IMG/VR virus record: IMGVR_UViG_3300010293_000025
Span: 1 to 31,312 of that record
Source of the DNA: a virus
Direction: 5' to 3' (one strand)
Length of the DNA: 31,312 bases
The translations under genes were made by a program, and so were the position numbers. Below the pieces are notes generated by a model. The model made no database searches, was not told where the DNA came from, and saw only the letters and a list, made by a program, of their open reading frames with translations. Positions 4,737 through 8,590 of this stretch are shown here, piece after piece (positions within the stretch are counted from its first letter, which is position 1; each line of letters begins with the position of its first letter).

Positions 4737-5774
4737 ATGAGTATCCAACCCCTTTCGGACTATACATTTTATTCGCGATATTCAAAATACATTCCCGAAA
4801 AACAACGAAGGGAAACATGGCATGAGACTGTTGATAGAGTCTTTGACATGCATAAAATAAAATTTGCGGATATATTAGAAACAAATTCAGAATTTAAAGA
4901 TTTATTTAAATTTGCAAAGTCAATGGTTCATAAAAAAGTTGTATTGGGATCACAGAGAGCCTTACAATTTGGTGGTGAACCAATTCTTAGAAAAAATGAA
5001 AAACTATATAATTGTTCTGCAACATATATTGATAGACCAAGAGCTTTTCAAGAAATAATGTATTTATTATTATGTGGTTGTGGGGTAGGATTTTCTGTTC
5101 AAAATTTACACATTAATCAATTACCCAATATTCAACCTTTAATAAATGGTGAAAAGACATATGTAGTAGAAGATAGTATTGAAGGGTGGGCTAATGCGGC
5201 GGGTGTTTTAGTTAATTCATATTTTGAAACACCACATGAAGAATGGGTTGAATATAAAGGATGCAAAATTAATTTTGATACAAGTTTAATTAGACCTCAA
5301 GGAGCACCAATTTCTGGAGGATTCAAAGCGCCTGGTCCTGTTGGATTAAGTAATGCTCTTGAAAAAATTCGTAATTTAATCGAGAAACAATTAGAAAAAG
5401 GCAACACAAAATTAAGACCTATTGATGCATATGATATTATTATGCATTGTTCTGATGCTGTTTTGTCGGGCGGAGTAAGAAGATGTTTGCCGGGATATTA
5501 TTCCGTATTAATGAAAAACGGTATATGGAAGCCTATAAAAAATATTGAAATTGGTGATGAAATATTATATCAAAATAAAACGTATCCTGTTACTAATGTA
5601 TTTGTAAATGGTGTCCAAGAATTATTGAAAATAAATACAAAAGACGGTTATCACGTTTCAACACCAAATCATAGATGGCTCGTCTATAATATACAAACAA
5701 AAAAAATATATTGGGAAGAAGCACAATATATTAATCCAAAAATACATAAATTTGTCAAAGAAAAAGATAAATAA
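4737..5774 (+). CDS. nrdJ: Class II ribonucleotide reductase N-terminal half fused to N-terminal split intein
   Basis: Residues 1-249 are the N-terminal part of an adenosylcobalamin-dependent ribonucleoside-triphosphate reductase, which makes deoxynucleotides for phage DNA. Recognisable parts are the RRETWHETVDRV start, LYNCSATYID with Cys93 (equivalent to the redox Cys119 of the Lactobacillus enzyme), GCGVGFSVQ, and SGGVRR at the insertion point. Residues 250-345 are an N-intein: Cys250 (codon at 5484) is the catalytic first residue, block A is CLPGYYSVLMKNG, and block B contains TPNH, the TxxH signature. The gene then stops at TAA 5772-5774. The rest of the enzyme is encoded at 6971-8590, so activity requires protein trans-splicing. 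Confidence 0.9.
   Translation: MSIQPLSDYTFYSRYSKYIPEKQRRETWHETVDRVFDMHKIKFADILETNSEFKDLFKFAKSMVHKKVVLGSQRALQFGGEPILRKNEKLYNCSATYIDRPRAFQEIMYLLLCGCGVGFSVQNLHINQLPNIQPLINGEKTYVVEDSIEGWANAAGVLVNSYFETPHEEWVEYKGCKINFDTSLIRPQGAPISGGFKAPGPVGLSNALEKIRNLIEKQLEKGNTKLRPIDAYDIIMHCSDAVLSGGVRRCLPGYYSVLMKNGIWKPIKNIEIGDEILYQNKTYPVTNVFVNGVQELLKINTKDGYHVSTPNHRWLVYNIQTKKIYWEEAQYINPKIHKFVKEKDK
5484..5771 (+). other. N-terminal split intein (IntN, 96 aa)
   Basis: The segment runs from Cys1 to the last residue before the stop. Block A (Cys1 start), block B with Thr-x-x-His (TPNH) and HRWLVYN match Hint-domain N halves. The extein residue before it is Arg (GVRR). At 96 residues it is typical of naturally split N-inteins without an endonuclease domain. 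Confidence 0.9.
5768..5773 (+). promoter_or_regulatory. TAAATA box before the homing endonuclease
   Basis: TAAATA lies 7 nt before the endonuclease ATG and overlaps the TAA stop of the upstream reductase/intein gene. It would give the endonuclease its own late-type promoter. Confidence 0.4.
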
Positions 5775-5780
5775 TATTAT

Positions 5781-6965
5781 ATGGTGAATATAATACCTCC
5801 AGAAAAAACCCCTAAATATAATAAAATTTTAGGAACACACGAAACAAAGAAAAGCTGGATTAAACTATCTTGCGCAAACGAAAATTGTAATAATGTTTGT
5901 TATAAACATTGGTCATTAATTGATAAATATTCTGTTTTCAGTTGTTCATGGAAATGTAAAAAGAGCCAATGTGTAAAATGCAAATTAGCCACAATAGCTA
6001 CACAAAAAGGCAATATCAACCCATTTAAAACAAAAGAAGGCCAAGAAAAGGCAAAAAAAACAATACAAGAAAAATATGGTGTAGATAATGTTTTTAAAAG
6101 TGATATTATTAAACACAAAATAAAAACTACAATGGTGGAAAAATATGGTGAAGATTCACCTATGAAGGTTCCAGAAATTCGCCAAAAGGCAATGATTACA
6201 AGATTAGTAAAATATGGTGAAGAAAACTTAACAGGAGTGTGCCCCACAATAAAAACAAAACAAACAAATCTAGATAAATATGGGAATGAGTGGTTTTTTG
6301 GATCAGTACAAGGTTACATGTCAAAACAGAATTTAATAGAAAATTATAATTATTCAGAAGAAGAAGTTGAAGAAATGTTTAAACGAAAAGGCATAACAAT
6401 TAAAAATTTAACAAGAAAATATGGAGATAAACAAATAGCAACAGAAATGTATGAAAAGTGGAAAATGGCTTGTGCAAATACATTGGAAAATTTTATTAAA
6501 AGACATGGTGTTTTAGATGGTAGAGCTAAATATGATGAATATAATAAAAAACGTCAATTGCAGCTTAAACAACCGTTTTCGAAAATATCGAAAGAATGTT
6601 TTAATGAAATATGTTATAATTTAACAGAAACCAACCAACAAAAATGTTTTTACGGAAAAAATGAACACGTGATTTGTGTTCAAGATATTAATAAAGATTT
6701 GCAGGTGTTTTTTGTTGATTTTAAATTGGATAATAAAATTATTGAATTTTATGGAGATTTTTGGCATGGTAATCCCGATGTATTTGATGGAAAAGAAATT
6801 CACCCCATAATACAAATTCCATATTTTGAAATAACCAAAAAAGATGAAATTCGTATTAATCTTATTAAATCACTGGGTTATGATATATTCATTATATGGG
6901 AACAAAAATATCGTAATAATAAAGAACAAGTAATTGAAGAAGCAATAAAATTTTTAACAACATAA
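5781..6965 (+). CDS. Free-standing homing endonuclease, Vsr-like EDxHD family
   Basis: The 394-residue product lies between the two intein halves. The N-terminal 75 residues are Cys-rich (CANENCNNVC, CSWKCKKSQCVKC) and could bind zinc. Residues about 75-175 hold three or four repeats of a KYG-(V/E)-(D/E)-x-(V/S/L) motif with flanking basic helices, a DNA-binding repeat common in phage homing nucleases. The C-terminal domain (about residues 310-394) carries VDFKLDNKIIEFYGDFWHGN and later IWEQKYRNN, as in very-short-patch-repair (Vsr)-like EDxHD nucleases. It is in the same frame as the N-half, separated by one stop codon and two codons. It probably cuts intein-less nrdJ alleles, driving spread of the whole insertion. 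Confidence 0.85.
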   Translation: MVNIIPPEKTPKYNKILGTHETKKSWIKLSCANENCNNVCYKHWSLIDKYSVFSCSWKCKKSQCVKCKLATIATQKGNINPFKTKEGQEKAKKTIQEKYGVDNVFKSDIIKHKIKTTMVEKYGEDSPMKVPEIRQKAMITRLVKYGEENLTGVCPTIKTKQTNLDKYGNEWFFGSVQGYMSKQNLIENYNYSEEEVEEMFKRKGITIKNLTRKYGDKQIATEMYEKWKMACANTLENFIKRHGVLDGRAKYDEYNKKRQLQLKQPFSKISKECFNEICYNLTETNQQKCFYGKNEHVICVQDINKDLQVFFVDFKLDNKIIEFYGDFWHGNPDVFDGKEIHPIIQIPYFEITKKDEIRINLIKSLGYDIFIIWEQKYRNNKEQVIEEAIKFLTT

Positions 6966-6970
6966 AATAT

Positions 6971-7123
6971 ATGGAAGAATATAATATAGAAGATTTTGAA
7001 TTTATTGATATAGAATCTATCGAAGAATACGGGTGGGACAATGTTTACGATATTGAAGTTTCTGAAATTCATTTATTTAATGCAAAAAATGAACAAAGTG
7101 GTACAACTTCTATATCACACAAT
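6971..7123 (+). other. C-terminal split intein (IntC, 51 aa)
   Basis: Residues 1-51 of the downstream gene form the C-intein. Block F is NVYDIEVSEIHLFNA, and block G ends in SISHN with the conserved penultimate His and terminal Asn. The first extein residue is Ser (codon at 7124), a proper +1 nucleophile. Confidence 0.9.
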
Positions 7124-8590
7124 TCTGCTACAATTTGCCTTTTCTCTCCTGAAGATGAGGAAATGCTTAAAGCAAAAACTGGTAATTGGTATAATGAAAA
7201 TCCACAACGAGCACGATCAAATAATTCTGTATTATTAGTAAGATCGAAAACAACAAAAGAAGATTTTGCAAAATTAATGCATTTTGTAAAAGAATTTGGT
7301 GAGCCGGGATTCATTTGGGCTGAATCAGAATATGTTTTATTTAATCCCTGTGCAGAAATCGTGTTCATTCCTGCATTGTTTAATGATAAAAATGAGGTCG
7401 TTGCTACGGGTGTTCAGCATTGTAATCTTTGCGAAATAAATGCACGTAAATGTAAAACAGCAAAAGATTTTTATGAAGCATGTATCGCAGCAGCATTTAT
7501 TGGTACAATGCAAGCATTTTATACAACTTTTCCGTATATAGGAAAAGTTACAGAAGAAATTGTACGAAAAGAAGCTTTGCTCGGGTGTTCCATTACTGGT
7601 ATGATGGATGCTCCTGATATTGTTTTCGATACAAAGGTTCAACGAAAAGGCGCAAAGATTATTAGAGATATTAATAAAAAAGTTGCTAAGTGGTTGAATA
7701 TAAATCCCGCTGCAAGAACCACATGTATTAAACCCAGTGGTAGTGCAGCTTGTATTTTAGGAACATCAAGTGGTATTCACCCACATCATGCAAAGAGATA
7801 TATTCGGCGTGTTCAAGCAAATAAGTTAGAGTTTTCTTTGCAAAAATTTTATGAAGTAAATCCTTTAGCTGTTGAAGAATCTGTTTGGTCGGCAAATAAT
7901 ACAGATATGGTTATTTCATTTTTATGTGAAGTACCAATAGGTTCAATTGTAAAGAACCAATTATCAGCTATTGACTTATTGGAAAAGGTTAAACTGACAC
8001 AACAAAATTGGGTTGAAGCGGGTACTAATGTTGAATTATGTACACAACCATACCTTCGTCATAATGTATCAAATACAATTACAGTGAGACCACACGAATG
8101 GGACGATGTGACAAATTACATTTATAAAAATCGAAATTGGTTTGCGGGTGTTTCTCTATTACCTGCAAGTGGGGATAAAGATTATCCGCAAGCCCCTTTT
8201 ACAACAGTTTATACACCCCAAGAGATTGTAAAAGAATATGGGGATGCTTCTGTTTTTGCATCGGGATTAATTGTTGACGGTTTAAGATTTTTTAATAATA
8301 ATTTATGGGCTGCTTGTGATATTGTTCTCTATAATAACAAAGAATTAACCGAAGAACAAACAGATTGGATTAGAAGAGCAAATCAATTTGCAAATCGTTA
8401 TTTTGAAGATGATATTCGCAAAATGACATATTGTTTAAAGGATGTTTATAATTGGAAAACTTGGTGTGATTTACAAAGAGAATATAAAGAAATTGATTGG
8501 TCCAAAGTTATAGAATTACAAGAGACACCTGTTAATATTGATACACTTGGTGCTATTGCTTGTTCTGGGGGAACGTGTGAAATTCTTTAA
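6971..8590 (+). CDS. nrdJ: C-terminal split intein fused to class II ribonucleotide reductase C-terminal part
   Basis: After the 51-residue C-intein, residues 52-539 are the catalytic part of the reductase. The first residues after Asn51, SATICLFSPEDEEM, directly continue GVRR of the N-half. Active-site features are FNPCAEI (Asn125, Cys127, Glu129; the thiyl-radical Cys408 site of the Lactobacillus enzyme), HCNLCEIN (Cys151/154), KPSGSAACILGTSSGIHP in the nucleotide-binding barrel, and the C-terminal redox pair in CSGGTCEIL (CxxxxC). The spliced enzyme would be 249+488=737 residues, close to the known class II monomeric enzymes. No second subunit is needed, but vitamin B12 is. Confidence 0.9.
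   Translation: MEEYNIEDFEFIDIESIEEYGWDNVYDIEVSEIHLFNAKNEQSGTTSISHNSATICLFSPEDEEMLKAKTGNWYNENPQRARSNNSVLLVRSKTTKEDFAKLMHFVKEFGEPGFIWAESEYVLFNPCAEIVFIPALFNDKNEVVATGVQHCNLCEINARKCKTAKDFYEACIAAAFIGTMQAFYTTFPYIGKVTEEIVRKEALLGCSITGMMDAPDIVFDTKVQRKGAKIIRDINKKVAKWLNINPAARTTCIKPSGSAACILGTSSGIHPHHAKRYIRRVQANKLEFSLQKFYEVNPLAVEESVWSANNTDMVISFLCEVPIGSIVKNQLSAIDLLEKVKLTQQNWVEAGTNVELCTQPYLRHNVSNTITVRPHEWDDVTNYIYKNRNWFAGVSLLPASGDKDYPQAPFTTVYTPQEIVKEYGDASVFASGLIVDGLRFFNNNLWAACDIVLYNNKELTEEQTDWIRRANQFANRYFEDDIRKMTYCLKDVYNWKTWCDLQREYKEIDWSKVIELQETPVNIDTLGAIACSGGTCEIL

What the first reader, a model, noticed from the sequence alone, without database searches (positions are those of the whole stretch)
4737..8590. 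Ribonucleotide reductase gene broken by a split intein with a free-standing EDxHD endonuclease between the halves
Seen: nrdJ stops after a complete N-intein (Cys250 start, TPNH block B), an endonuclease gene follows, then a C-intein (SISHN, then Ser) continues the reductase. The extein halves sum to 737 residues, a full class II enzyme, and all catalytic cysteines are present. Known: 'fractured genes' with split inteins and Vsr-like endonucleases were described from marine metagenomes by Dassa and colleagues. Inference: trans-splicing makes deoxynucleotide synthesis depend on the mobile element, which therefore cannot be lost easily. These intein halves are not identical to the NrdJ-1 sequences I remember, so this may be a new split intein.
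Basis: partly seen in the sequence, partly recalled or inferred. Interest (0 to 1): 0.85.

Follow-up and report, generated by a model that had tools for sequence, protein, structure and literature searches.

The report
Phage ribonucleotide reductase in two halves
A T4-like phage carries its ribonucleotide reductase gene as two separate pieces, with a selfish DNA-cutting enzyme gene between them; the two proteins almost certainly rejoin themselves by protein trans-splicing, a known arrangement for which related phages here show successive stages of insertion, decay and apparent repair at one and the same site.

Summary
nrdJ is broken exactly after residue 249 (SGGVRR) by a 96-residue N-intein; a 394-residue endonuclease ORF follows; a 51-residue C-intein (ending SISHN) then leads into Ser and the remaining 488 reductase residues. 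The joined 737-residue protein aligns without a gap to intein-free relatives at this site. It is not NrdJ-1, which sits at another site (NPC|SEI) and shows no sequence match. The break is not an assembly error: at least five other phage contigs carry split inteins of the same family at the same site, with EDxHD-type endonucleases at different stages (intact, truncated remnant, gone). Three more carry seamless cis mini-inteins of the same clade; one is the well-supported sister of a split one, so split and fused states have interconverted. One relative (L152) has nrdJ in four pieces with three split inteins. Verdict: a new member of a known kind. Its added value is a same-site series that makes the origin, decay and possible re-fusion of split inteins testable. 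Splicing and cleavage are inferred from sequence, not shown.

The parts
4737..5483 (+). nrdJ N-extein, 249 aa, ends ...DAVLSGGVRR
   Evidence: PHROG 367 positions 31-283; 47-60% identity to the closest intein-free phage NrdJ
5484..5774 (+). N-intein, 96 aa (CLPGYYSV...STPNHRWLVY...KEKDK) plus stop TAA
   Evidence: block A Cys1 and block B T..H invariant in same-site relatives; 34% identity to the same-site cis-intein of Thermus phage phiLo
5768..5773 (+). TAAATA element 7 nt upstream of the endonuclease start, of the kind seen upstream of many genes of this phage
   Evidence: TAAATA lies within 30 nt upstream of 15 of 33 genes, 2.9 expected from AT-matched background; function inferred
5781..6965 (+). 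free-standing homing endonuclease ORF, 394 aa: KYG-repeat (DUF7487) N-terminal part, EDxHD/Vsr-like catalytic C-terminal part (IIEFYGDFWHGNP)
   Evidence: Pfam DUF7487 4.7e-13; PHROG homing endonucleases; Foldseek I-Bth0305I 3r3p probability 1.00, target TM 0.70, and Vsr 1vsr probability 0.94
6971..7123 (+). C-intein, 51 aa (MEEYNIEDFEFIDIESIEEYGWDNVYDIEVSEIHLFNAKNEQSGTTSISHN)
   Evidence: block F D/H and terminal SHN invariant in the clade
7124..8590 (+). nrdJ C-extein, 488 aa, begins Ser-Ala-Thr-Ile (Ser+1), plus stop
   Evidence: 50-60% identity to the closest intein-free NrdJ

Best explanation
The phage's class II ribonucleotide reductase is made as two polypeptides. The first carries an N-intein at its C-terminus, the second a C-intein at its N-terminus. 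The halves associate into one HINT fold and splice in trans (Cys1 thioester, Ser+1 branching, Asn cyclisation) to give a native 737-residue NrdJ. The ORF between the halves is a homing endonuclease with an EDxHD/Vsr-type catalytic domain, which most likely cleaves intein-free nrdJ at or near the SGGVRR|S codons. Repair of the break from the carrier copies the whole N-intein/endonuclease/C-intein block. Shown: anatomy, empty-site alleles, same-site relatives, conserved intein residues, predicted HINT fold of a same-site cis relative. Inferred: trans-splicing, cleavage, homing.
For: Exact anatomy. Gap-free empty-site alleles in 79 viral loci and 7 phages. The same three-ORF arrangement at the same site in L120 and L137 and L148, and partly in L091 and L138, which are cut by contig ends. 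Splicing residues invariant. A same-site cis relative (L122) is modelled at pLDDT 93.7 and matches solved inteins (Prp8 TM 0.84, NpuDnaB, gp41-1). The N-intein, C-intein and extein codons all change least at position 2 and, when each is compared with L135, most at position 3, as under purifying selection. Endonuclease fold: I-Bth0305I and Vsr are the best plausible matches, and Vsr entries plus 3r3p dominate the weak profile hits. No Rfam match, so no recognised intron, in the window. Relatives that keep intact intein halves after losing the endonuclease (L135, L136, L152) imply that splicing, not the endonuclease, is what is retained.
Against: No expression or splicing data. In the window, N-intein and endonuclease are in the same frame, separated by a TAA and two codons, so readthrough to a fused protein cannot be excluded from this locus alone (the C-intein is in another frame, and in L120 all three are in different frames). 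The endonuclease model is of low confidence overall (pLDDT 61.6), its fold match is above the usual E cut-off (0.067), and its sequence-profile matches to Vsr are not significant (E about 0.35). The target site is not shown.
Confidence: 0.88

Rival explanations
1. Assembly or sequencing error: one continuous gene with an ordinary intein-endonuclease fusion, broken by false stops.
For: In the window only a TAA and two codons separate N-intein and endonuclease, in the same frame. In L091 the N-intein has an apparent frameshift next to a short repeat.
Against: Independent contigs with only 39-53% intein identity and 25-38% endonuclease identity have the same three ORFs with different frame relations and overlaps, each piece with its own start codon. 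C-intein and endonuclease are in different frames in every locus tested.
Confidence: 0.03
2. Dead gene: nrdJ was inactivated by insertion and the halves no longer splice.
For: Some phage nrdA genes with inteins have been proposed to be degenerating (PMC3653736).
Against: No stop or frameshift in 737 extein codons; all splicing residues kept; codon-position pattern of purifying selection in both intein halves and both exteins; split halves kept intact even where the endonuclease has decayed.
Confidence: 0.05
3. Genes-in-pieces without splicing: the two polypeptides associate non-covalently into an active reductase, as reported for the Aeh1 phage nrdA.
For: Such a reductase is known (Friedrich 2007, cited in PMC3653736; not read here). 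The intein part could then be only an assembly handle.
Against: Full set of splicing residues conserved; cis versions at the same site must splice to give a continuous enzyme; the intein halves would be left inside a conserved RNR motif.
Confidence: 0.04

Closest known systems
'Fractured genes' of Dassa et al. 2009 (NAR 37:2560), split inteins with a free-standing, often Vsr-like, endonuclease between the halves
   Same: Conserved DNA-metabolism enzyme broken by a split intein, endonuclease ORF between, phage source, Vsr-like endonuclease. According to PMC3653736 two nrdJ cases were in that set.
   Different: The paper itself is not in the library, so whether one of its nrdJ cases is at this site could not be checked; its content is taken from memory and from citing papers. 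Here the site is SGGVRR|S, and endonuclease-less split and cis relatives at the same site are also found.
NrdJ-1 split intein
   Same: Split intein in a ribonucleotide reductase (NrdJ), Cys1 and Ser+1, HINT fold.
   Different: Native flanks NPC / SEI (PMC13123727) instead of SGGVRR / SAT; no sequence match of the window N-intein to 8UBS and none of the same-site profile; longer stretch between the block F His and the terminal SHN.
Cis-intein of Thermus phage phiLo nrdJ (MH673673) and LAGLIDADG cis-inteins of other phages
   Same: Exactly the same insertion site (RR|C...HN|S).
   Different: Continuous, with an endonuclease domain inside in the phage-contig examples; separate clade with 100/99 support.
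EDxHD homing endonuclease I-Bth0305I (PDB 3r3p) and Vsr endonuclease
   Same: Predicted catalytic-domain fold; conserved D...E-x-x-G-x-x-x-H pattern within the window's own set.
   Different: Not significant by sequence; N-terminal region of DUF7487 repeats; free-standing between intein halves, whereas 3r3p is recorded as a mobile intron protein.

Membership tests
Fractured gene (Dassa type) | One conserved enzyme gene broken in two adjacent ORFs whose exteins sum to one full enzyme | tested here: met
   249 + 488 aa, gap-free to intein-free NrdJ
Fractured gene (Dassa type) | N- and C-intein halves at the break with the splicing residues | tested here: met
   predicted HINT fold of a same-site cis relative
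Fractured gene (Dassa type) | Free-standing endonuclease gene between the halves | tested here: met
   5781-6965; homing endonuclease families in PHROGs
Fractured gene (Dassa type) | Trans-splicing activity | not testable with these tools
   needs co-expression
EDxHD / Vsr-like homing endonuclease | Vsr-like catalytic fold | tested here: inconclusive
   3r3p probability 1.00, target TM 0.70; 1vsr probability 0.94; but E 0.067 and 0.12 on a weak model
EDxHD / Vsr-like homing endonuclease | Significant sequence similarity to a proven member | tested here: inconclusive
   Vsr 0.35, 3r3p 0.8; significant to PHROGs named homing endonuclease
EDxHD / Vsr-like homing endonuclease | Cuts the intein-free allele near the insertion site | not testable with these tools
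   needs a cleavage assay
NrdJ-1 intein | Insertion at NPC|SEI | tested here: not met
   site is SGGVRR|SAT; NrdJ-1 flanks from PMC13123727
NrdJ-1 intein | Sequence similarity to 8UBS | tested here: not met
   no hit for the N-intein at E 10 nor for the same-site profile at E 1
Class II ribonucleotide reductase (NrdJ) | Profile match and cysteine motifs | tested here: met
   PHROG 367 8.5e-46 and 3.1e-49; RTPR model 1.1e-31 and 1.6e-22 but below its whole-protein cut-off per half; YNCSA, NPCAEI, CNLCEIN, CSGGTC present

The most novel reading that the evidence does not exclude
The SGGVRR|S site of phage nrdJ carries one family of inteins that moves reversibly between split and fused states: an EDxHD endonuclease gene breaks a mini-intein, later decays, leaving an endonuclease-less split intein, which may fuse again into a seamless cis mini-intein. 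In some phages this has been repeated at several sites, so that one reductase is assembled from up to four polypeptides by three different split inteins (L152).
Probability: 0.5. Interest if true: 0.75.

Novelty: new member of a known kind. Interest (0 to 1): 0.6.

Why it matters
How split inteins arise, and what happens to them after their endonuclease is lost, has been argued from scattered cases in different genes. Here one insertion site gives empty, LAGLIDADG cis, mini cis, split with intact endonuclease, split with truncated endonuclease, and split without endonuclease alleles, so the order of events can be tested by phylogeny and by biochemistry. The halves are also a new set of candidate split inteins with Cys1 and Ser+1 at a site other than that of NrdJ-1, and the three intein pairs in L152 must be mutually orthogonal if that reductase works.

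Tried and rejected
Plain-protein scan with the whole C-ORF gave nothing, because the patterns chosen were not conserved; the alignment query and junction DNA patterns worked. KLEP7 (L002), first taken as a second split intein because it has two RNR ORFs, is intein-free at this site; it is interrupted further down by intron-like sequence. L090, the only hit of the N-intein scan, is another intein-like frame outside nrdJ. The genome contigs pattern scan gave only GC-rich chance matches. A C-intein pattern found unrelated inteins, plus one in an nrdJ (L165) outside this clade. No Rfam family and no tRNA in the window. The intein tree is mostly unresolved; only the L136/L122 sister pair and the separation of the LAGLIDADG inteins are well supported.

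Full report
Observation. Cutting at Cys 5484 and before Ser 7124 gives an N-extein of 249 aa ending SGGVRR, an N-intein of 96 aa, a C-intein of 51 aa ending SISHN and a C-extein of 488 aa beginning SATI; the joined protein is 737 aa and 83.8 kDa. The PHROG ribonucleotide reductase profile is matched to position 283 by the first half and from 284 by the second.

Empty sites. An alignment-based scan of the viral contigs kept 80 close relatives. In 79 of them, and in seven phage genomes (KLEP7, RHph_I1_18, Mel-JY01, VPs20, PD0307, JG054, ct2os315), residue 249 is followed directly by the C-extein serine; in the last, L066, the N-extein lies off the stretch. The insert is therefore exact to the codon. 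This ranking says nothing about how common inteins are, because only the best 80 matches were kept.

Same-site relatives. DNA patterns across the two splice junctions found other inteins at exactly this site. With an EDxHD-type endonuclease ORF between the halves: L120, L137 and L148; L138 has endonuclease and C-half but its contig starts inside the endonuclease, and L091 has an N-half with an apparent frameshift, the endonuclease and the start of a C-half at the contig end. Split with only a remnant of the endonuclease: L136 (120 aa, keeping ELHGDYWHANP) and L135 (about 58 aa of the C-terminal end). Split with no endonuclease, about 40 nt between the ORFs: L152. Continuous mini-inteins of the same clade: L119, L121, L122. 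LAGLIDADG cis-inteins at the same site form a separate clade (100/99), and Thermus phage phiLo has a cis-intein there too.

Intein. Across seven split and three cis members, Cys1, the T and H of TPNH, block F D and H, and the terminal S-H-N are invariant. The cis member L122 is modelled at pLDDT 93.7 and matches solved inteins over its length. Its fusion point, between strands 90-95 and 98-101, is where the others are split. A well-supported pair (99/98) joins the split L136 with the cis L122, so at least two changes of state are forced on the tree; the direction is not resolved.

Endonuclease. The window ORF shares with those of L120, L137, L091 and L148 an N-terminal DUF7487 match and, in the aligned set, a C-terminal region with invariant D...E-x-x-G-x-x-x-H...KD...G...W. 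Fold comparison of a weak model puts I-Bth0305I (probability 1.00, target TM 0.70) and Vsr among the best matches; sequence profiles give the same names without significance. I file it as EDxHD/Vsr-like with moderate confidence. EDxHD enzymes are known as long-target, multi-domain phage homing endonucleases (PMC3943268).

Expression. This phage shows almost no Shine-Dalgarno sequences; TAAATA lies upstream of 15 of 33 genes against 2.9 expected, including the endonuclease. The endonuclease start thus resembles other gene starts of this phage. Codon-position differences against L135 are lowest at position 2 and highest at position 3 in both exteins and both intein halves. gp23-type capsid and T4-type terminase genes place the window in a T4-like phage.

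How it works. Most likely trans-splicing restores NrdJ, and the endonuclease spreads the block into intein-free nrdJ. Retention of intact halves in L135, L136 and L152 after loss or decay of the endonuclease fits the idea that the split state persists because the reductase needs the splicing, while the endonuclease is dispensable. Splicing, cleavage and homing are inferred.

Comparison. The arrangement is the fractured-gene type of Dassa 2009, known here only from memory and through citing papers (PMC3653736 reports two nrdJ cases in that set).

Beyond the finding. L152 encodes its reductase in four pieces with three split inteins; the four extein pieces join to 756 aa without a gap at any junction. 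The ORFs or remnants in its three breaks differ: none left at the first, a PD-(D/E)xK-like ORF (by eye; Pfam only weak) at the second, a short GIY-YIG-like remnant (by eye) at the third.

Noticed in passing
L152:650-5140 (IMGVR_UViG_3300008255_001543): nrdJ in four pieces broken by three split inteins (SGGIRR|S, NP|C, KPSGSA|S); joined extein 756 aa aligns gap-free to intein-free NrdJ. Second break holds a PD-(D/E)xK-like ORF, third a GIY-YIG-like remnant.
   Followed up: partly
L138:652-3726 (IMGVR_UViG_3300005915_002084): nrdJ split at the site of the window and again at NP|C; the second split intein resembles NrdJ-1 (8UBS, 1.9e-29).
   Followed up: partly
L148:4940-8063 (IMGVR_UViG_3300035661_000107): Same-site split intein with a 406-aa open frame for the endonuclease, and a second split at KPSGNA; contig ends inside the last piece.
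   Followed up: partly
L028:4330-7449 and L029: Continuous intein of about 0.9 kb in nrdJ at YN|C, the first redox cysteine, in relatives that are intein-free at the window's site.
   Followed up: no
L118:1-2766 (reverse strand): A T4 UvsW-like helicase gene looks split by an intein within its DEC|HKA motif, with a 285-aa ORF between the halves.
   Followed up: no
L120:7037-8689 (reverse strand): DNA polymerase III alpha-like gene that ends in intein-like sequence, possibly another break in the same phage.
   Followed up: no
L002:1145-1416 (KLEP7, OM654377): nrdJ of an isolated phage, annotated as two genes, is interrupted by about 270 nt that look like group I intron sequence by eye; not an intein.
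   Followed up: no
window, upstream of 15 of 33 genes: TAAATA within 30 nt upstream of gene starts (15 observed, 2.9 expected), with hardly any Shine-Dalgarno sequences.
   Followed up: partly
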